Shown here: positions 15,998-34,882 of the stretch, piece by piece
Numbering within the stretch: position 1 is the stretch's first letter
How the letters are laid out: each line of letters starts with the position of its first letter
NCBI GenBank assembly: GCA_020850475.1
Contig: JADZEO010000021.1
Span: 1 to 36,893, forward strand
From: Bdellovibrionales bacterium
Lineage (GTDB): Bacteria; Bdellovibrionota; Bdellovibrionia; Bdellovibrionales; UBA1609
DNA length: 36,893 bases
Direction of reading: 5' to 3'
Made by a program: the position numbers and the translations under genes
Notes under the pieces: model-generated
What the model saw: only the letters and a program-made list of their open reading frames with translations
Database searches by the model: none
What the model was told of the DNA's origin: nothing

Positions 15998-16175
15998 AAA
16001 GGTGCCTGCTACTTTTTGTCGGTCACGGTGCGTCTAGTGGGGCCATCGATGAAAACATTTTCCTGATGAACCACTAGGGCGTTATTCTAGTTTGGGATAT
16101 TACCTAGTCAACATGGCCAAGAGGGGATAAGAGTTTGTGATGCACCGTGACCGACAAAAAGTAGCAGGCACCTTT
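15998..16175. repeat. 34-base perfect terminal inverted repeat enclosing divergent promoter region
   Basis: The segment 15998-16031 is the exact reverse complement of 16142-16175. Each arm is a copy of the dispersed repeat (core AAAGGTGCCTGCTACTTT) plus TTGTCGGTCACGGTGC. The 110-base interior contains a second inverted repeat CTAGTGG/CCACTAG (16034-16040 and 16071-16077). The whole block is the 5' region of both TIGR03546 and the GT9 gene, and the right arm encodes the first residues of the GT9 protein. The design resembles a small non-autonomous element or a copied repeat pair. Confidence 0.9.
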
Positions 16176-17126
16176 TCGACTCTAGTAGTGCACACGGCCA
16201 ACATGGGCGATGTCGTGTCGGCTGCGGGGTTGGTGCGCGCTTTGGCCGACACTCGAGGCGGGGTGGAAATCTTGGTGCGTTCTCCTTTTCGCGGACTCTT
16301 CGCGGGAGAAGTGGGAATTCGCGAGATTGGTGAAGATCAGCTTAACCAGAGCGGCCCTTATGAACTGTGTCTTGATTTGGACTCATCTCAGACCAGTCGC
16401 AAAATCATCCGCGAAGTAAAGGCGAATCGAAAAGTGGGGCGTTATCTCAACACCCTGAGGCGACTCAAATACTGGAACCTTTATGACCTCCAGGTGCCTA
16501 AGCACCCAGTAGATCACATCGTGCGCGACTATCAGGTGCTCAGTGAGGCGTTGGAGCTCGGGCCATTGGCGTCGCCCCGCCTTACGCCCCTCGATTTGCC
16601 TGCACACTTGAGCGAGTGGCTCCGTCCCCTCCAAAATTCGGGACGCCCCATCGTGGTTCTGGCACCTGAGGCGGCAAATCCCATTCGTCACCTGCCACCA
16701 CTGTTGGTGGATGATCTCATCGATCAGCTGGTGGCGAGAGGTCGCGCGGTGGTGATGGTGGGTTTGGATCAACCGGCCATGCAGAGATGGTGCGCGCGCC
16801 ATCCCGATTGGGCTTATTGGCGCCCGCTTCAGCTAGCAGCAGTGAAGGCTTTGTTTTCGCACGCGCGCGTGTTCATTGGGCCCGATAGCGGTCCTATGCA
16901 TCTTGCCTGCGCTCTGCAAATGCAAGTGGCGGCCCTGTTTGGTCCGGCCTTGACCAGCAAATGCGGGCCACTGCAAATCAACGGCAAAATCATTGAAAAG
17001 TCGTTTCCCTGTCGGCCTTGCAATCAAAACAAACCCTGTCCGTATGATCGTCGCTGCTTAACCACAATCACCGCTACAGAGGTACTGCAGGGTCTGGGTG
17101 TGATTGACGAACCAGGCGAGAATTGA
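16140..17126 (+). CDS. GT9 (heptosyltransferase-like) glycosyltransferase
   Basis: About 328 residues. The nucleotide-binding N-terminus reads LVVHTANMGDVVSAAGLVRAL, and the C-terminal domain carries the GT9 signature FIGPDSGPMHLACALQMQVAALFGP with VLAPEA before it. This matches ADP-heptose:LPS heptosyltransferases and related enzymes that build the lipopolysaccharide core on the cytoplasmic face. A C-x-x-C-x(4)-C-x(5)-C cysteine set near 290-305 (FPCRPCNQNKPCPYDRRC) may bind metal. The first dozen residues (HRDRQKVAGTFS) are encoded by the dispersed repeat, and no start lies closer to the conserved strand, so the repeat supplies the start codon (ATG 16140 or GTG 16137). Confidence 0.85.
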   Translation: MHRDRQKVAGTFSTLVVHTANMGDVVSAAGLVRALADTRGGVEILVRSPFRGLFAGEVGIREIGEDQLNQSGPYELCLDLDSSQTSRKIIREVKANRKVGRYLNTLRRLKYWNLYDLQVPKHPVDHIVRDYQVLSEALELGPLASPRLTPLDLPAHLSEWLRPLQNSGRPIVVLAPEAANPIRHLPPLLVDDLIDQLVARGRAVVMVGLDQPAMQRWCARHPDWAYWRPLQLAAVKALFSHARVFIGPDSGPMHLACALQMQVAALFGPALTSKCGPLQINGKIIEKSFPCRPCNQNKPCPYDRRCLTTITATEVLQGLGVIDEPGEN

Positions 17127-17138
17127 GAGCGTTAGCTT

Positions 17139-17711
17139 ATGGGACTCCCGCAGCTGGTGTACTGGCTTTGTGATTTGCTAATGTTTCGTCTCCTCGGCTG
17201 GCGGGTTGAGGGGCAACTTCCTCAGGTTCCCAAGTATGTGGCCATAGGAGCGCCTCACACATCCAATTGGGATTTTTTTATTGGAATGGCAGCTTACCAT
17301 CGCCTCAAGATACAATTTCGGTGGTACGGCAAACACACCATTTTCATTTGGCCAGTTGGAGTTCTATTACGAGCGATGGGGGGATTTCCCATCGAACGTG
17401 CCCACCATCATGATGTGGTCTCGGTCGCCATTGCTAAGTTTAAGCGCGAGGATCATTTTATTTTGGCACTCGCTCCAGAAGGCACTCGAGGCAAAGTGGA
17501 CAAATGGAAAACGGGCTTTTACCACATCGCCCTCGGCGCGGGTGTGCCGATTTGCCCTTTTGCTCTCGACTTTGAGCACAAGCGCGTGGTGTGCGGGCAA
17601 CTTTTTTATCCGACAGGGGACAAAGAAAAAGATATCGCCCATCTCCAAGATTTTTTTCGCCAATTTCGGGGGCGGCATCCCGAGCTGGGGTTTCCGCCGC
17701 CCAACCATTAA
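17139..17711 (+). CDS. PlsC-like 1-acylglycerol-3-phosphate acyltransferase
   Basis: A 190-residue protein with a short hydrophobic N-terminus. It has the acyltransferase motif H40-TSNW-D45 (HX4D), the acceptor-binding motif APEGTRGKVDKW with E114-G-T-R, and a late PIC-PFAL segment. These are the hallmarks of PlsC/LPLAT enzymes, which add a fatty acid to lysophosphatidate or a related lipid at the inner membrane. This short, single-domain type is often found with lipopolysaccharide genes, and it starts 12 bases after the GT9 gene, so co-transcription is likely. Its TAA stop (17709-17711) shares bases with a dispersed repeat copy. Confidence 0.85.
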   Translation: MGLPQLVYWLCDLLMFRLLGWRVEGQLPQVPKYVAIGAPHTSNWDFFIGMAAYHRLKIQFRWYGKHTIFIWPVGVLLRAMGGFPIERAHHHDVVSVAIAKFKREDHFILALAPEGTRGKVDKWKTGFYHIALGAGVPICPFALDFEHKRVVCGQLFYPTGDKEKDIAHLQDFFRQFRGRHPELGFPPPNH

Positions 17712-17730
17712 AAGGTGCCTGCTACTTTTT
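17710..17730. repeat. Dispersed repeat copy filling a convergent junction
   Basis: A full copy of the repeat (AAAGGTGCCTGCTACTTT plus flanking A and T) spans the whole gap between two convergent genes. Its first A residues are part of the PlsC-like stop (17709-17711) and its last base is part of the TGA stop of the minus-strand gene (17730-17732). Confidence 0.9.
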
Positions 17731-20618
17731 CATCCCGCGACTACGCCCCGGCACGTGAGAGCAGGTGGGAGCAGCGCGCGGTGGAGGAAAGGCACGACGG
17801 TATTCAAGAACTGGGTGGGCGCACTTTGGTGGATGTAGTGATTTGCGCCGGGAATTGTAAAAAGCTGAGCGTCGGGTAAATGCTGCCGCAAGTGAGCCAG
17901 TCCTTCCGCCGAAATCGCTGAGGTCTTGGGGTTGGCTTGCAGGATGAGAATGGGCATTTTTAGACGGCCCAGCTCTTGAGTGAAGTCTTCGCGGCTGGCC
18001 TGTCCGCGATAAAGGACAGAAACTTTGGGATCAAAGCTCAATTTCAGAGTGCCGTCGGCTCGACGGGTTGTCTGATTTTGCAAGATTGACTGTGCCTTAA
18101 GATTGCCAAAGGTGGGCGCGAGAGTCTGTAGCAGAGCTTCGCCGCTTACAAATTCGACGGGCAAGTCGGCGGCAATTCGCGCACGCTTGACAATTTGCTC
18201 ATTGGTTTCTCGCGAGCGCGCGAGGAGTTCCATGTCCTCAATAATCAGGGCTTTGACTCGTTCAGGATAAAGTGCGGCAAAGCGAGTTGCCGTACGAGCG
18301 CCCATCGAGTGGCCGAGCAAAAAAACCGATTGCAGCTGCAAATGATCAAGGAGAGCGCGCAGGTCTAGAGCCATCGTATTCGTCGAATAGTCTTCACCGC
18401 GAATGGCGGTGTTGCCGTGTCCGCGTTGGTCATAAACGATGACCCTAAAATGCTCGGCCAAGTGGTGTACAACACTGTCAAAGGTGGCGAGCGATGAGTC
18501 CATACCGTGAACGAGTACGAGCGCCGGAGCCGATCTTGAACCATACTCGCGGTAGTTGATTTCTTGCGCCACCAGGGGAACCGGTTGGTCGACATAGAGA
18601 CCGCGCGACAAAATGTACTTTTCAACTAGAGGAGGAACCATTCCGCCAATGCTTTCGCCCTTGGCCAGAGTCTGGCGAATCAAAGTTGAAGAACGCGCTT
18701 GTTCGGAATACACAACCATGCTGTTGGTCTGCAAAAAAGAGATTTGCCGCGACTGTTCCGGTTTTAGGGCTGGCATCGCGTAGCCCGCACGAGCGATCAC
18801 TGCGACTTCGTGCCCCTCTCTCGCGTGTTTTTCTAAGTATCCGGCTTCTAAAAATCGTTCGAACGAATCGGCCCCCATGACGTGGACCAGTTGAGCGCCG
18901 GGAGCGAGGGTTCCGAATAGCCGCTGGAGTGTGGGCCCCGTGCCTTGCTGAAGAAGCGAGTAATAATCAGAAGAAAGAGTCTTCACTTTGGGAATTTCTT
19001 GGGTTCCGAGCCGAATCATCTCCTGCCGATCATGCCAGCCAATGGGAGTTTCATTGTGTTTGGTTTTTACGGTCGGAATGACATAAATTTGATCAAGTCC
19101 CAACGACTCAATGGCGGTCACCAGCAACTGTTGATGGCCCGTGTGAAACGGGTTGAGTACTCCAGTAAAATATCCCACTCGCGGGGCGCTCAGCTTCTTA
19201 GTGAGCTCAACCTGTTCAGTGAGTTTGGCGAGAGGATACAAGCGTGCCACGGCTTCGCGCCAGGCGGCGGGATCACTGGTCGCCTGGTCAGTTCCACCGT
19301 TGGCGGTGGTGGTTTGCAAGGCGGCACGGAGTGAGAGCCAGGCCGCAAGGTCGGCTGACATTTGAGGGTTCTGCCAATAGCCTTGAAGTTGTTTGGCATA
19401 GGCCTTTTGAGCGAGGGCCGTGGCGAGTACCGTGCGCAGGGCCTCCGGGTCAATCGGGGTCACCGACCAACGAGTATTGGCGATGGATTCAACGAGCAGG
19501 CCGGCAATCTGTCTGAGAGCCCACTCCGGCTCCACCAGAGTCACATCAACTAGAAACCTTAAGCGGGCATGAATGGGCGCGCTCTTAATCAGTTCACTGA
19601 GTCTCCCCAGACTACTTGCTTGGAGCGCAAACGCCTCCCGCAGGGTCTCGACTTTAACTTTTGCCAGCGCTTGGTCGAGACTCTGGTCAATCATCTTAAA
19701 AACGCCCCAGCGCAAGAGAATCTGAATCTGCTCGGGTGCAGTTTTGTCGTCGAGGAGTTTAAGCAGGTTTCGGACAATTTGAAGACGATTGGTATTAGTC
19801 GCCTGGGCAATACTCGTTTTTATGTGGGCTTCGTCCGCCCGGCTCAAGCTTTGCTTACCGACTTTGGCCATCGTTCGCGCGACCCGAATTCCATTCAACA
19901 CCGGATCGCGATCGATCTCGTCCCAGTGGATGATCGTGAGATTTTGTTTGCGCCAGGCGGAGTAGCCTTGGAACCGATCAAGCACACCGCCCTCGCGTAC
20001 AACCGTGGCGTAGTCTTTGCCGACTAAACTCTGGCGGAGTCCTTCGATGAAGGATCCTCGAACTGGAATCATGACCGTATCGATGTCAAAAATGCCGTTG
20101 AGTTGCAAATCGGTGACTTGGTGAAAGATAGAAATGTCAAAGATATCGGGTGTACCGCCGAGCCAAAAAAATCCAAACCCCGCGTTGTATCTGTGCCTTT
20201 GCGGGAGCGGGAGAGCGGGGTTTCCGCGTGGCCGCGGTCTGAGATCCTTATCGGAAAACTTCCCCAAGGTCGGAGATTCGAGCTTCTGACCGATGCTTCG
20301 AGCCCAGTCTTCGGTCACTTCGCGGCCAGCGACCACAAAAATGTCGAGGTCGCGCATCTCTAAAGGTTTGCCATCGTAAAGGTGATCAAGAATGGCGCGG
20401 GAACTACCTCCGCCGACGAAGATGTCCTTGATGCCAAAATGCTGGGCGAGGTTCGCTCTAAACTCTTCGATTCGATTCGAGATGGCCGTCAGCTCCGGTG
20501 ACGGGGCCAATCGCGTGAGCGTTTGGGCATAGGCCGAGAAGGGCTGCGCAAAAGAAATGGCAGCAAATATAAAAGCCAGCGCGATCATCGACCGGCAATG
20601 GCGGGTCATTGCACCCAC
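17730..20618 (-). CDS. Exported fusion: nucleotidyltransferase + NadD-like + alpha/beta hydrolase
   Basis: About 962 residues from GTG 20618, which has AGGAG seven bases upstream; the frame stays open to 20666. Numbering below counts from 20666. A signal peptide spans about 20-47 (hydrophobic core, FSAYA-Q). Domain 1 (about 55-200) is nucleotidyltransferase-like: GGGSSR 85-90, then RDLDIF 105-110 with the D-x-D pair. A helical region follows (200-490). Domain 2 (about 495-690) is NMN/nicotinate-mononucleotide adenylyltransferase-like: GVLNPFHTGH with HTGH 508-511, MGADSFERF 597-605, and SSTLIR 659-664. Domain 3 (about 705-965) is an alpha/beta hydrolase: VHGMDSS, GHSMG with Ser787, and GANHYIHQ with His943; the acid residue is not certain. 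The key motifs look intact. A secreted protein with an ATP- or NAD-type enzyme is unexpected. The function is unknown. Confidence 0.85.
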   Translation of the reverse strand: MGAMTRHCRSMIALAFIFAAISFAQPFSAYAQTLTRLAPSPELTAISNRIEEFRANLAQHFGIKDIFVGGGSSRAILDHLYDGKPLEMRDLDIFVVAGREVTEDWARSIGQKLESPTLGKFSDKDLRPRPRGNPALPLPQRHRYNAGFGFFWLGGTPDIFDISIFHQVTDLQLNGIFDIDTVMIPVRGSFIEGLRQSLVGKDYATVVREGGVLDRFQGYSAWRKQNLTIIHWDEIDRDPVLNGIRVARTMAKVGKQSLSRADEAHIKTSIAQATNTNRLQIVRNLLKLLDDKTAPEQIQILLRWGVFKMIDQSLDQALAKVKVETLREAFALQASSLGRLSELIKSAPIHARLRFLVDVTLVEPEWALRQIAGLLVESIANTRWSVTPIDPEALRTVLATALAQKAYAKQLQGYWQNPQMSADLAAWLSLRAALQTTTANGGTDQATSDPAAWREAVARLYPLAKLTEQVELTKKLSAPRVGYFTGVLNPFHTGHQQLLVTAIESLGLDQIYVIPTVKTKHNETPIGWHDRQEMIRLGTQEIPKVKTLSSDYYSLLQQGTGPTLQRLFGTLAPGAQLVHVMGADSFERFLEAGYLEKHAREGHEVAVIARAGYAMPALKPEQSRQISFLQTNSMVVYSEQARSSTLIRQTLAKGESIGGMVPPLVEKYILSRGLYVDQPVPLVAQEINYREYGSRSAPALVLVHGMDSSLATFDSVVHHLAEHFRVIVYDQRGHGNTAIRGEDYSTNTMALDLRALLDHLQLQSVFLLGHSMGARTATRFAALYPERVKALIIEDMELLARSRETNEQIVKRARIAADLPVEFVSGEALLQTLAPTFGNLKAQSILQNQTTRRADGTLKLSFDPKVSVLYRGQASREDFTQELGRLKMPILILQANPKTSAISAEGLAHLRQHLPDAQLFTIPGANHYIHQSAPTQFLNTVVPFLHRALLPPALTCRGVVAG

Positions 20619-20810
20619 AATATAACTCCTGTTGATGGAGTACCCAAAATACCTAACCCAGCCCAAAGAAATGAGGGCTCATCGGGCCTCGATTTGCAAA
20701 CCAGGGGCCGCTGAGTGAATCGCCAGCGCCATTGAATGCGGGGCCAGAGCCACTCCGCCCCTGCCAGACCGGGGGGTAAGGTGGATTTTTCAGACGAGGG
20801 TGAAATTTCG

Positions 20811-20828
20811 AAAGGTGCCTGCTACTTT
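20811..20828. repeat. Dispersed repeat copy after sugar transferase gene
   Basis: Core AAAGGTGCCTGCTACTTT, four bases past the minus-strand stop of the sugar-phosphate transferase gene. The T-run after the core is only three here. The rest of 20619-20832 holds no gene that I can support. Confidence 0.9.
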
Positions 20829-20832
20829 CGAG

Positions 20833-22221
20833 CTAGCGGCCGCGGCCGAGGAGGACGACAGTGGCGGTCTTCAGCAGTACCAACCAGTCGAGGAGCAGCG
20901 AGTAGTTTTTGATGTAGTAGAGCTCATACTGGAGCTTTTCTTTGGCGTCGTCGACGGTGGCGCCATACGGATACATCACTTGCGCCCAGCCGCTGAGACC
21001 TGGGCGCACCAAGTGGCGGTAGTTGTAAAATGGAATCTGGGTGGCCAATTCACCCGTAAATTCGGGGCGCTCCGGGCGTGGACCGATGAAACTCATGTCG
21101 CCGCGAAAAATATTCCAAATTTGCGGGAGCTCATCGATGCGCGAGACCCGCATAAAACGCCCCCAAGCCGTCACGCGGGCGTCGCCTTGTTGGGCCCACT
21201 GGGCGCCATTTTTCTCGGCGTCTTGGCGCATGGAGCGAAACTTATAAATGATAAAGTCGTGGCCATTAAGCCCACAGCGGCGCTGCGAGTAAATGATCGG
21301 CCAGCCGCTGGTAATTAAGACCATCAGTGAGGCGATCAACATTAACGGCAGAGCCAGGATCAAGATAATTCCGGCGCAAAAAATATCACCAACCCGCTTT
21401 AGGCGCAGTCCAATGGGGTTGTGAAGGAGGCTAAATCCTTGGCTCAGGGCGAACCAACTATTTTCGAGGTAAAAGACGGGAACTTTGCGCCAAACGGCCT
21501 CGTAAAAATCCGAGAGATCGTAAACGCGCGTGCCGTGAAAGCGTGCATCCATCAATTTCTCGACGAGATTTTCGGGAATTTTTTGGCCCGTGGCAATCAC
21601 GATCCCGCGCCAGGGTTGTTTGAGAAATTCATCGACGTCTTGCCAACTGCCTTTGACGTATTTTTCGAAACCGCTAAAGTTTTCGGCGTCCGGCTCAAAT
21701 CGATTTTGCGTTAGGCAGGTGAGTTGCACGTCGTGCGGGGATTTTTCGTAATCGCGCAAAAAGTGCTGCAAATAATCGCGAGTGCCAATGATGAGCCAAC
21801 GCGACTGCTGTTCAAGTCTTTTGACTCGCGCATGGAGGACAATTCGCCAAAACGCGGACCAAACAAAAAACAAAGCGTACGATCCCATGAGCACACCGCG
21901 ACCGGTGAGACCGCCGAAACCCTTCAAGCCCACGAGGTAGGCGCCCACGACCACCGTTGCCGCTGCGATGACCAGTGCGGCCGCGAGCCGGGCCAGGTCC
22001 CGCAAAAAGTGCAATCGATCTTGAAGTTTGTAAACGTCGAACACGTACATCAGGAGCAGCGTGAAGGCGAGGCAGGGCACCAGCTTAAGCCAGAGATCCA
22101 TCCCCACCCAATGTCCCAGGCGCACGTAGTAAGCCGCCTGAAAGGCCGCAAAAAACCCCACGCCATCAAGTAAGACGAGGATTATTTTGTAAAACGGGGC
22201 CGGGCTAAAGCGGTTGGACAT
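20833..22221 (-). CDS. Polyprenyl glycosylphosphotransferase (WbaP/WcaJ-like)
   Basis: A 462-residue membrane protein. Four to five hydrophobic segments lie in the first 130 residues, followed by a Rossmann-like soluble part (SRWLIIGTRDYLQHFLRDYEKS), a fifth membrane helix near 280-305, and the catalytic C-terminal domain. The catalytic region has YKFRSMRQDAE, SRIDELPQIWNIFRGDMSFIGPRPERPEF and RPGLSGWAQV, all family signatures. It transfers a sugar-1-phosphate from a UDP-sugar to undecaprenyl phosphate, the first step of exopolysaccharide or O-antigen assembly. The UDP-sugar epimerase gene lies upstream on the same strand (267-base gap, with a repeat copy between). This is the priming enzyme for a surface polysaccharide made in this region. 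Confidence 0.9.
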   Translation of the reverse strand: MSNRFSPAPFYKIILVLLDGVGFFAAFQAAYYVRLGHWVGMDLWLKLVPCLAFTLLLMYVFDVYKLQDRLHFLRDLARLAAALVIAAATVVVGAYLVGLKGFGGLTGRGVLMGSYALFFVWSAFWRIVLHARVKRLEQQSRWLIIGTRDYLQHFLRDYEKSPHDVQLTCLTQNRFEPDAENFSGFEKYVKGSWQDVDEFLKQPWRGIVIATGQKIPENLVEKLMDARFHGTRVYDLSDFYEAVWRKVPVFYLENSWFALSQGFSLLHNPIGLRLKRVGDIFCAGIILILALPLMLIASLMVLITSGWPIIYSQRRCGLNGHDFIIYKFRSMRQDAEKNGAQWAQQGDARVTAWGRFMRVSRIDELPQIWNIFRGDMSFIGPRPERPEFTGELATQIPFYNYRHLVRPGLSGWAQVMYPYGATVDDAKEKLQYELYYIKNYSLLLDWLVLLKTATVVLLGRGR

Positions 22222-22248
22222 AGTGAAGCGAATTTACCGCAATCTTTG

Positions 22249-22268
22249 AAAGGTGCCTGCTACTTTTT
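22249..22268. repeat. Dispersed repeat copy upstream of sugar transferase gene
   Basis: AAAGGTGCCTGCTACTTTTT lies 28 bases upstream of the minus-strand start of the sugar-phosphate transferase gene, in its 5' region. Confidence 0.9.
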
Positions 22269-22409
22269 CGCAAAGAGTGGTGCAATGCATCGAGCTCCGG
22301 GAAGCGGACCAACAAGGGATTGAAAACCCGTCCGATGGTTTTTTAAGGATGGCGAAGAACTTGCTCAAGTGGGGAGTCATCACATTCCACTCCTTATTCG
22401 GTGAGCTGG

Positions 22410-22436
22410 TAGGCCCTGGGCGATCCCCGGGGCCTA
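22410..22436. repeat. GC-rich interrupted hairpin between epimerase and transferase genes
   Basis: Arms TAGGCCC (22410-22416) and GGGCCTA (22430-22436) pair, with GGG and CCC pairing inside around a CGAT loop. There is no T-run on either strand, so it is not a typical terminator. The rest of 22269-22488 has no gene. Confidence 0.5.
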
Positions 22437-22488
22437 TCGGCCTATTTCGACCGATCGAGCGCCCCTTAAATTTTTCGGGCACGTAGCA

Positions 22489-23457
22489 TTAGAGCAAAAG
22501 CTCTTTGAGCCCCTCGCGGAGTGAGATGTGGGGGCGAAAGCCCAAGGCCTTCTGGGCCAGTCCTGACGATCCGAGTGAGCGGTAAATGTCGCCAGCGCGA
22601 AAGGCTTGAAATTCGACCTGCGGAGCGGCTCCGCTTGGGTGGAGTTCCTTCCATAATTCCGCCAAAGTCGACGTGAGCAATTTGAGATTTGTTTCAGTTC
22701 CAGAACAAATATTAAAGACCTGACCCTTGAGAGCCTGGCCCTCGGGAGCGAGCCCGACCTGCAAATTGACGGCAGCCACATCTCGAACGTGAACAAAATC
22801 GCGCGTTGAAGTGCCGTCACCATAGACAAGCATCGGTTGACCACCCTTGATCGCGGCCACCCATTTGGGGATGACAGCGGCATACGCTCCCTCGGGATCT
22901 TGTCGGGTACCAAAAATGTTAAAGTAGCGAAAGCCCACCGTCTCCAGTCCATAATGACGGGCGTACTGCTCGGCATAGAGCTCATTGACTCGCTTGGAAG
23001 CCGCGTAGGGTGACAGCAAGGCGCCTAAATCGTTCTCGGTTTTTGTGGCTGCCGGGTGATCACCATAAACGGCGCTGCTTGAGGCATAAACCACGCGCTT
23101 GACTTGATGAGTACGGGCCGCCTCAAGCACATTAAGAAAACCAGTCACATTGACTTCGTGGGCTTCGCGGGGATTTTCAATACTCTTCGGCACCGAGGCC
23201 ATGGCCGCATGATGCAAAATCACATCGGCACCACGCACCACCTTGTCCACTGCTCTGGCGTCACGAATGTCTTCGCAGACAAAGACAAAGTTTTTGCGGG
23301 TGCCGTTGGGGAGGGCGCTCAGAAACCCTTCGAGGTTTTCCCACTTTCCCGACGACAAATTGTCGAGGCCCACCACGTGGTGCCCTTGGCGAATCAGAGT
23401 CTCCACCAAGTGCGACCCCACAAATCCTGCAGCTCCAGTCACCACCCATCGTTTCAT
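22489..23457 (-). CDS. NAD-dependent UDP-sugar epimerase (UDP-GlcNAc 4-epimerase-like)
   Basis: About 322 residues from ATG 23457 (MKRWVVTGAAGFVGSHLVETL). The NAD-binding motif TGAAGFVG is at about 7-14, the SSSAVYG motif and catalytic SPYAASK are in the middle, and RYFNIFGTRQDPEGAYAAVIPK and STRDFVHVRDVA match the WbpP/Gne type. This short-chain dehydrogenase interconverts UDP-GlcNAc and UDP-GalNAc (or the uronates) in polysaccharide synthesis. The frame is open upstream to 23736, but that extension translates a dispersed repeat (KVAGTF) and is not family-like. No good ribosome site precedes 23457. It probably supplies the sugar donor for the transferase downstream on the same strand. Confidence 0.85.
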   Translation of the reverse strand: MKRWVVTGAAGFVGSHLVETLIRQGHHVVGLDNLSSGKWENLEGFLSALPNGTRKNFVFVCEDIRDARAVDKVVRGADVILHHAAMASVPKSIENPREAHEVNVTGFLNVLEAARTHQVKRVVYASSSAVYGDHPAATKTENDLGALLSPYAASKRVNELYAEQYARHYGLETVGFRYFNIFGTRQDPEGAYAAVIPKWVAAIKGGQPMLVYGDGTSTRDFVHVRDVAAVNLQVGLAPEGQALKGQVFNICSGTETNLKLLTSTLAELWKELHPSGAAPQVEFQAFRAGDIYRSLGSSGLAQKALGFRPHISLREGLKELLL

Positions 23458-23480
23458 AAGTTGGGTGTACCGTACGGACG

Positions 23481-23540
23481 AAAAGGTGCCAGCTACTTTT
23501 TGCTTGAAGCGCGGTGTTAATTGAAAGTAGCAGGCACCTT
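23481..23540. repeat. Inverted pair of dispersed repeat copies
   Basis: A + copy with one change (GGTGCCAGCTAC, 23481-23501) faces a reverse copy (AAAGTAGCAGGCACCTT, 23524-23540), 22 bases apart. The transcript of either strand could fold into a stem of about 17 pairs. It lies between the epimerase and carboxypeptidase start regions, which are divergent. Confidence 0.9.
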
Positions 23541-23583
23541 CTAGCATTGGCAGCGGAGGACATTGGCAGTAGGCTCGGCGGCT

Positions 23584-25107
23584 ATGAAAAAAAATTCGTC
23601 GTATCAATCCTTGGTTCGCCATTTTACTAAAATCCGCAATCTTCAACACCTGGGGGCAATTGCCTCGTGGGACGAGGCGGTCATGAGGCCTCAGGGTGCG
23701 GGAGAATACCGGGCCGAGGCGATGGCAGAGCTGCATGTTTTACTCAACGATCTGTTGTGTGACCCGCGACTGCCGGAGTGGCTTGCAGAGGCCCAGCAAG
23801 CAGCTTCTCCGAGTGATTCTTGGCAGGCGGCAAACTTGCGAGAGATGGCGCGTGAGGTAAGTCAGGCAACGGCGGTGGACTCCGCGCTGGTCGAGGCCAA
23901 GACCAAAGCATCCATGCGCTGTGAGCAAACTTGGCGGATTAAGCGGGCGCAAAATGATTGGACTGGGATGAAGCCCTTGTTTCAAGAGGTGGTTCGTCTC
24001 GCTCGCCTGGAGGCTCAACAGCGCGCGGCTCATTCGGGACTTAAACCCTACGACGCCATGATGGATCTTCATGAGCCAGGAATGCGGAGCGATCAAGTCG
24101 ATCAGTTGTTTTTTGACCTTAAGAATTTTCTTCCTGACTTTATCCAACGCGTTCTCGCTCGACAGCGGAGCGAAGGGGTGCTGCGTCCCGATGGTCCATT
24201 TCCAATTCCGCAGCAACGGCAATTGGGTTTGAAGGCGATGGAGGTATTGGGATTTGATTTTCGTCATGGGCGCTTGGATGTGAGTCACCATCCGTTTTGT
24301 GGTGGCGTGCCTCACGACGTGCGAATTACGACCCGTTACCAGGAGCATGACTTCGCCGACAATTTGATGTCGGTGCTGCATGAGACAGGTCACGCCCTTT
24401 ATGAACAGGGGTTGCCGCGAGAGTGGACCCATCAGCCAGTGAGCTCGGCCCGCAGCATGGGCATTCACGAGTCGCAAAGTCTGTTATTCGAAATGCAGGT
24501 GGGGCGAAGCTTTCACTTTCTCCAGTATCTCAGTCCCATAATGAAGGAGTTGTTGCACTTAGGGCCAAACGAGCAGGCCTGGAGCCCTGAACATCTCTAT
24601 CGATCGTTGACGCGAGTTAAGCCGGACTTTATTCGAGTCAATGCCGATGAGGTGACCTATCCCGCGCACGTAATCCTACGATACGAAATCGAAAGGCCAT
24701 TGATCGAGGGCCGTCTGGAGGTCGAAGACATTCCCGAAGTTTGGAACCAAAAAATGCAGCAGTACCTCGGTCTGAGTACGGTTGGTAATTTTAAAGATGG
24801 TCCCCTTCAGGATGTCCATTGGATGGGCGGGACCTTTGGCTATTTTCCCAGCTACACTCTGGGTGCGATGAATGCGGCGCAGATTTTTCAGGCCGTTTAT
24901 CGAGATTGCCCGGGGCTCCTCGACGATTTTGCTCGAGGAGATCTCAGCCGCTTGCGACGTTGGTTGGGCGAAAGAATTTGGTCCCGAGGTAGCTTTCTCG
25001 AGGTGAATGAGCTGCTGCGGCAGGCGACCGGCGAGGTGCTCAATCCTAAGTACTTTAAACAGCATCTCAGCTATCGTTACTTGGAGCGCGACTGGACTCA
25101 AGTCTGA
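23584..25107 (+). CDS. M32 carboxypeptidase (Taq carboxypeptidase family)
   Basis: About 507 residues from ATG 23584. A TTG at 23563 is preceded by GGAGG at only three bases and would add seven residues. The zinc motif is in VLHETGHALYEQGLP (H266-E-T-G-H270), with the downstream MGIHESQSLLFE segment that supplies the third ligand Glu in M32 metallocarboxypeptidases. Other family stretches, such as the ASWDEAVMRP start and the HPFCGGVPHDVRITTRY region before the zinc site, are present. The length matches the family (about 500). It removes C-terminal residues from peptides and is cytoplasmic (no signal peptide). It is probably monocistronic and divergent from the epimerase. Confidence 0.9.
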   Translation: MKKNSSYQSLVRHFTKIRNLQHLGAIASWDEAVMRPQGAGEYRAEAMAELHVLLNDLLCDPRLPEWLAEAQQAASPSDSWQAANLREMAREVSQATAVDSALVEAKTKASMRCEQTWRIKRAQNDWTGMKPLFQEVVRLARLEAQQRAAHSGLKPYDAMMDLHEPGMRSDQVDQLFFDLKNFLPDFIQRVLARQRSEGVLRPDGPFPIPQQRQLGLKAMEVLGFDFRHGRLDVSHHPFCGGVPHDVRITTRYQEHDFADNLMSVLHETGHALYEQGLPREWTHQPVSSARSMGIHESQSLLFEMQVGRSFHFLQYLSPIMKELLHLGPNEQAWSPEHLYRSLTRVKPDFIRVNADEVTYPAHVILRYEIERPLIEGRLEVEDIPEVWNQKMQQYLGLSTVGNFKDGPLQDVHWMGGTFGYFPSYTLGAMNAAQIFQAVYRDCPGLLDDFARGDLSRLRRWLGERIWSRGSFLEVNELLRQATGEVLNPKYFKQHLSYRYLERDWTQV

Positions 25108-34816: not shown

Positions 34817-34882
34817 AACGCACGATCACGCACCTTTAAAAGAAGTAGCAGGCACCTTTACAAGAAGTAACAGGCACCTATC
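34817..34882. repeat. Tandem copies of the dispersed repeat
   Basis: Three 22-base units: one degenerate (ending GCACCTTTA at 34838), one full (AAGTAGCAGGCACCTTT, 34843-34859), one with GTAA (AAGTAACAGGCACCTA, 34865-34880). Arms GCAACGC (34815-34821) and GCGTTGC (34887-34893) flank the array as an inverted repeat. It lies between the small membrane protein gene and the TolC-like gene. Confidence 0.85.

What the first reader, a model, noticed from the sequence alone, without database searches (positions are those of the whole stretch)
17730..20618. Exported three-domain fusion: nucleotidyltransferase, NadD-like and hydrolase
One protein of about 962 residues joins a signal peptide, a GGGSSR/DLD nucleotidyltransferase-like domain, a helical region, a complete NadD-like domain (HTGH, SSTLIR) and an alpha/beta hydrolase (GHSMG, His943). 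I know of no named family with this order. Nucleotidyl transfer outside the cytoplasm would need an extracellular nucleotide source, such as host cell contents in a predator or the periplasm of prey. It may be a toxin-like or nutrient-scavenging enzyme, or a modifier of a secreted metabolite.
Basis: partly seen in the sequence, partly recalled or inferred. Interest (0 to 1): 0.85.

Follow-up and report, generated by a model that had tools for sequence, protein, structure and literature searches.

The report
Exported nucleotidyltransferase–NadD–hydrolase fusion protein
A relative of predatory bacteria appears to export a single large protein that joins an RNA-tailing-type enzyme, an altered NAD-making-type enzyme and an ester-cutting-type enzyme; it belongs to a little-noticed set of exported nucleotide-handling proteins in this phylum that may act on prey or host material.

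Summary
On the minus strand, 17730-20618 is one open 962-aa gene with a likely ribosome-binding site and a signal peptide. Its N-terminal domain has the class II CCA-adding/poly(A) polymerase fold (AlphaFold model, Z 19.6 over 293 residues). The three catalytic carboxylates are kept, but the base-reading Arg of EDxxR is lost. The middle domain is NadD-like: HTGH, Asp584 and SSTLIR are intact, but the nicotinate-stacking Trp is missing. The C-terminus is an alpha/beta hydrolase (Ser771, probable Asp795, His927).
It is not a merged pair of genes. Signal peptide–NTase–NadD recurs in two other Bdellovibrionota genomes, one with no extra C-terminal domain and one with a different one. The hydrolase is so far unique to the window.
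A wider pattern emerged. Exported NadD-like domains, all without the Trp and separated from housekeeping NadD in a tree, occur across the phylum alone or fused to SelO-like, siderophore-synthetase-like, HHR-motif or kinase-like domains.
Best reading: an exported, nucleotide-dependent modifying enzyme acting where prey or host nucleotides are available. Extracellular NAD synthesis is less likely. The substrate is unknown. Novel as an architecture; no function has been tested.

The parts
17730..20618 (-). whole gene, 962 aa, GTG start
   Evidence: single open frame; AGGAG 7 nt upstream
20626..20630 (-). likely ribosome-binding site AGGAG
   Evidence: sequence
20526..20618 (-). signal peptide, residues 1-31 (...AFIFAAISFAQPFSAYA|QT)
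   Evidence: 12-residue hydrophobic core, mean Kyte-Doolittle 2.68, positive N-region; cleavage site by inspection
20034..20486 (-). NTase head domain (residues ~45-195), GGGSSR 69-74, DLD 90-92, third Asp 161
   Evidence: AF2 model + VIA-align Z 19.6 to class II CCA/A-adding enzyme; carboxylates invariant in 8 homologues
19464..20033 (-). neck/body helical part of the NTase (residues ~196-385), contains RDPVLNGIRVAR 237-248
   Evidence: same model; profile match to Thermotoga tRNA NTase 3h37 E 4e-4 over this part
19185..19463 (-). low-confidence helical linker (residues ~386-478)
   Evidence: pLDDT mostly below 60; mostly absent in L007
18588..19181 (-). NadD-like domain (residues 480-677): HTGH 492-495, Asp584, SSTLIR 643-648
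   Evidence: Pfam E 1.2e-8, TIGR00482 E 3e-20 below cut-off, PDB 1yul E 6.8e-9
17775..18566 (-). alpha/beta hydrolase (residues 685-948): Ser771, probable acid Asp795, His927
   Evidence: Pfam E 3.8e-30; aligned to 7c4d and 3kxp
17711..17725 (.). dispersed repeat AAAGGTGCCTGCTAC just after the stop
   Evidence: 40 copies in the genome; flank only, not part of the gene
20811..20825 (.). second copy of the same repeat upstream of the gene
   Evidence: flank only

Best explanation
A Sec-exported multi-enzyme protein of a Bdellovibrionota bacterium. SHOWN by sequence or model: signal-peptide-like N-terminus; class II CCA/PAP-fold nucleotidyltransferase with an intact carboxylate triad; NadD-like adenylyltransferase with intact ATP motifs but an altered acceptor pocket; alpha/beta hydrolase with an apparently complete catalytic set. 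INFERRED: the protein works outside the cytoplasm, most likely in contact with prey or host contents, where NTPs are present. There the NTase domain transfers a nucleotide to an acceptor, and the NadD-like domain transfers AMP to a phosphate-bearing acceptor other than NaMN. The C-terminal hydrolase is a lineage-specific add-on that cuts an ester or related bond in the same material. It is one version of a modular set of exported NadD-like proteins with different nucleotide-using partners.
For: Start, signal peptide and frame. NTase fold; carboxylates invariant in 8 homologues. NadD motifs. Trp117-equivalent present in 10 of 10 housekeeping domains and 0 of 25 exported ones; its role in nicotinate stacking in E. 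coli NadD is stated in PMC8035330. Tree: exported and housekeeping domains are separated by one branch, 100/99; window, L007 and L014 group 98/92. Core architecture recurs. Different partners: SelO E 4e-16, IucA_IucC E 2e-5. Exported stand-alone NTase relatives. The genome has its own normal NadD and two normal PF01743 enzymes, so this is no housekeeping copy. Use of prey nucleoside monophosphates and a predicted nicotinamide requirement in Bdellovibrio: PMC7529429.
Against: No activity, localisation or lifestyle data. Whether this species is a predator is not known; it is inferred from the phylum. ATP is normally scarce outside cells. In L007 the NadD SxTxIR Arg is lost, so that member may be partly degenerate. 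The family is sporadic (NTase type in 8 of 369 phylum genomes), so it is not essential to predation.
Confidence: 0.45

Rival explanations
1. Extracellular or periplasmic NAD/nucleotide salvage: the NadD-like domain makes NAD or NaAD from prey NMN/NaMN and ATP, and the other domains help recycle nucleotides.
For: NadD is the closest family; the Bdellovibrio metabolic model needs external nicotinamide (PMC7529429).
Against: The nicotinate-stacking Trp is missing in 25 of 25 exported domains; the active-site Lys/Arg is Asn in the window sub-group; making a dinucleotide outside would probably hinder import; it does not explain SelO-like or NTase partners.
Confidence: 0.2
2. ATP generator for an exported enzyme: the NadD-like domain runs backwards (dinucleotide + PPi to mononucleotide + ATP) and feeds the fused NTP-using domain, which releases PPi.
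For: Several fused partners are from PPi-releasing families (NTase, SelO-like, siderophore-synthetase-like). Reversibility of NMN adenylyltransferases is general knowledge, not tested here.
Against: Loss of the nicotinate-stacking Trp speaks against NAD as the dinucleotide; kinase-like and HHR-motif partners are not known to release PPi; stand-alone exported NadD-like proteins exist.
Confidence: 0.1
3. Partly dead scaffold: one or more domains keep the fold but act as a binding module.
For: L007 has lost the SxTxIR Arg; the CCA base-reading Arg is lost in all members; L070 has HDNH in place of HxGH.
Against: In the window the catalytic motifs of all three domains are intact, and the NTase carboxylates are invariant in 8 of 8.
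Confidence: 0.15
4. Assembly or annotation artefact: the hydrolase was joined wrongly, or the signal peptide is not used.
For: The hydrolase fusion is seen in only one genome.
Against: One open frame with similar GC and codon usage across domains; the core recurs in independent genomes and relatives also carry signal peptides.
Confidence: 0.05

Closest known systems
Class II CCA-adding enzyme / bacterial poly(A) polymerase (PF01743, PF12627; PDB 3wfp, 3h39, 3aqk)
   Same: Head-neck-body fold over ~290 residues, Z 15.9-19.6; DxD plus third carboxylate
   Different: Exported; no PF01743 match; GGxVRD replaced by GGGSSRA; EDxxR Arg lost; fused to NadD-like and hydrolase domains
NadD, nicotinate mononucleotide adenylyltransferase (TIGR00482; PDB 1yul, 1kam, 1k4k)
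   Same: Best sequence match, HTGH, active-site Asp, SSTxIR
   Different: Below the curated cut-off; nicotinate-stacking Trp missing; active-site Lys/Arg replaced by Asn; exported; separate branch from housekeeping NadD
Alpha/beta hydrolases such as 3kxp (alpha-(N-acetylaminomethylene)succinic acid hydrolase) and 7c4d (putative esterase)
   Same: GxSxG, His, and an Asp that aligns with an Asp of 3kxp after the strand that follows the nucleophile
   Different: Distant by sequence; no equivalog cut-off met; C-terminal part of a fusion
SelO (YdiU) protein AMPylator fused to a NadD-like domain in other genomes of the phylum (L024, L025, L062)
   Same: Same exported NadD-like module behind another nucleotide-using enzyme
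   Different: Partner fold differs; no hydrolase

Membership tests
Class II CCA-adding enzyme / poly(A) polymerase | Overall fold | tested here: met
   Z 19.6, 293 residues, rmsd 4.0 to 3wfp_C; 3aqk Z 15.9; profile E 4e-4 to 3h37
Class II CCA-adding enzyme / poly(A) polymerase | DxD and third catalytic carboxylate | tested here: met
   D90, D92, D161 invariant in 8 of 8; the role of D161 is by analogy
Class II CCA-adding enzyme / poly(A) polymerase | GGxVRD motif | tested here: not met
   GGGSSRA in the window
Class II CCA-adding enzyme / poly(A) polymerase | EDxxR base-recognition motif in the neck | tested here: not met
   Window RDPVLN; Arg absent in all members
Class II CCA-adding enzyme / poly(A) polymerase | Adds CCA or A to RNA | not testable with these tools
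   needs enzyme assay
NadD | HxGH and SxTxIR ATP motifs | tested here: met
NadD | Trp that stacks on nicotinate (E. coli W117) | tested here: not met
   0 of 25 exported vs 10 of 10 housekeeping; role from PMC8035330
NadD | Curated NCBIfam cut-off (TIGR00482) | tested here: not met
   73.1 vs 112.45 bits
NadD | NaMN/NMN adenylylation | not testable with these tools
   needs enzyme assay
Alpha/beta hydrolase fold (PF00561) | GxSxG nucleophile elbow, acid and His | tested here: met
   Ser771, His927; Asp795 aligns with an Asp of 3kxp; acid assigned by alignment only
Anti-phage defence system protein | Match to a PADLOC model | tested here: not met
   no match for window or L014
Sec-exported protein | Signal peptide | tested here: met
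   hydropathy and charge heuristic; SignalP could not be run and export itself was not tested

The most novel reading that the evidence does not exclude
Bdellovibrionota own a modular class of exported nucleotidyl-transfer enzymes built on a re-purposed NadD-like domain that, in prey or host contents, either adenylylates a new acceptor or regenerates ATP from a dinucleotide and PPi for its fused partner.
Probability: 0.25. Interest if true: 0.85.

Novelty: new variant of a known kind. Interest (0 to 1): 0.6.

Why it matters
CCA/PAP-type and NadD-type enzymes are core cytoplasmic machinery; exported versions are unexpected. If the family acts on prey or host material, it would point to nucleotide-based modification as a tool of predatory or host-associated Bdellovibrionota. 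It also gives a clear set of proteins, across the phylum, on which the substrate question can be tested.

Tried and rejected
Gene merger or frameshift: rejected. Housekeeping NadD or CCA copy: rejected, since normal copies exist elsewhere in the genome. Defence gene: no PADLOC match. Viral origin: no relatives in viral contigs for the core or the HHR-type proteins, and only a weak NadD-only phage match to the SelO-type protein. Plasmids: only ordinary Bacillus NadD. Relatives outside the phylum: the two genome-contig scans gave only L016, the same Bdellovibrionales MAG as L014; the scan relies on short conserved peptides, so distant relatives may be missed. The fold of the HHR-motif partner is open: no PDB sequence match, and the fold-search list was filled by the NadD part. 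ParB/Srx is only my reading of its HHR motif. Paper searches found no report of exported NadD, but the library lacks most subscription journals.

Full report
What is there. The finding's coordinates are correct but the gene lies on the minus strand: 17730-20618, GTG start, 962 aa, AGGAG seven bases upstream. The frame has no stop. It begins with a typical signal peptide (MGAMTRHCRSMIALAFIFAAISFAQPFSAYA|QT; hydrophobic core 2.68 on the Kyte-Doolittle scale against a maximum of 1.55 among the housekeeping NadD set; cleavage site by eye).

N-terminal domain. No Pfam or NCBIfam model sees it. An AlphaFold model of residues 36-476 from eight homologues (mean pLDDT 78.8, core about 90) matches class II CCA/A-adding tRNA nucleotidyltransferases over 293 residues at Z 19.6, the bacterial poly(A)-polymerase-type entry 3aqk at 15.9 and FAM46 at 12.7. 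Independently, a sequence profile finds the Thermotoga tRNA nucleotidyltransferase at E 4e-4. D90, D92 and D161 are invariant in all eight, so nucleotidyl transfer is plausible. The Arg of the EDxxR base-reading motif is missing in all, so CCA addition to tRNA is unlikely.

NadD-like domain. HTGH, Asp584 and SSTLIR are intact and NadD is the best match, but the score is below the curated cut-off. E. coli NadD uses W117 to stack on the nicotinate ring (PMC8035330), and His19, Arg46 and Asp109 are active-site residues (PMC1249556). In my alignment the Trp is present in 10 of 10 housekeeping domains of this phylum and in 0 of 25 exported ones. The Arg46 position is Lys/Arg in the housekeeping set and Lys in the other exported domains, but Asn in the window, L007 and L014 (read by eye). 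The acceptor has probably changed.

Hydrolase. Abhydrolase_1 E 3.8e-30; nearest solved structures are 7c4d and 3kxp. Ser771 and His927 are clear. The usual acid site after the later strand is empty, as in 3kxp, and Asp795 aligns with an Asp of 3kxp, so the set is probably complete. Only one moderately close relative of this domain was found in the order (G023, 35%).

Is the architecture real and shared? In G344 (Bdellovibrionales MAG-397, JAEUWC01) a 685-aa protein has SP-NTase-NadD and stops there. In G014, same family as the window, a 772-aa protein has the same core with a different C-terminus. The two are 36% and 33% identical to the window's core. The NTase domain alone, with a signal peptide, occurs in four more genomes. 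The NTase type was found in 8 of 369 phylum genomes. GC and codon usage are similar in all domains of the window gene. The hydrolase junction has no independent confirmation.

Wider pattern. A profile of the NadD-like domain over 359 phylum genomes brought out, besides the housekeeping NadD, a second kind: exported NadD-like domains fused to SelO-like (L025, PF02696 E 4e-16), siderophore-synthetase-like (L073, PF04183 E 2e-5, just under cut-off) or HHR-motif domains (14 rows of the tree, two of them with a kinase-like C-terminus), or standing alone. Members with a complete N-terminus, except the small NTase-only L015 and possibly L064, show a signal-peptide-like start. A tree separates the exported from the housekeeping domains with 100/99 support and groups window, L007 and L014 at 98/92; it is unrooted, long branches are present, and the label sets were chosen by me. 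A model of an HHR-type member confirms the NadD fold (Z 19.9).

How it most likely works. I favour an exported enzyme that uses nucleotides available in prey or host contents, transferring nucleotides to acceptors that are not tRNA and not NaMN, with an added hydrolase. Export, catalytic competence and the setting are inferred. The strongest rival is NAD-type salvage; the boldest is a reverse-running NadD that makes ATP for its partner. Neither was testable here.

Known or new. Each domain belongs to a known fold; the combination, the exported setting and the altered pockets are not described in any paper I could find. I rate it a new variant of a known kind.

Noticed in passing
15998-16012, 16161-16175, 17711-17725, 20811-20825, 22249-22263, 34845-34859: A 15-base word AAAGGTGCCTGCTAC, 40 exact copies in the genome (none for the reversed control), six of them in this window and one at each end of the fusion gene; some copies elsewhere lie in opposite pairs roughly 70-100 bases apart.
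   Followed up: partly
L003:1486-2583: Housekeeping NadD in this phylum is fused to what looks like RsfS (frames of about 330-380 aa).
   Followed up: no
L025:688-3066, L024:4455-6812: Exported SelO-like plus NadD-like fusions, 785-792 aa.
   Followed up: partly
L066:2347-4887, L067:3047-5098: Exported HHR-motif plus NadD-like plus a C-terminal kinase-like part (weak Fam20C hint in L067).
   Followed up: no
L073:2533-4695: Exported siderophore-synthetase-like (IucA/IucC) plus NadD-like fusion.
   Followed up: no
L068:282-980, L069:2959-3876, L070:2700-3455, L071:2756-3454: Stand-alone exported NadD-like proteins; L070 has HDNH in place of HxGH.
   Followed up: no
window 16137-17711 and 20833-23736: Neighbours are envelope or polysaccharide genes: heptosyltransferase, acyltransferase, sugar transferase, epimerase.
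   Followed up: partly
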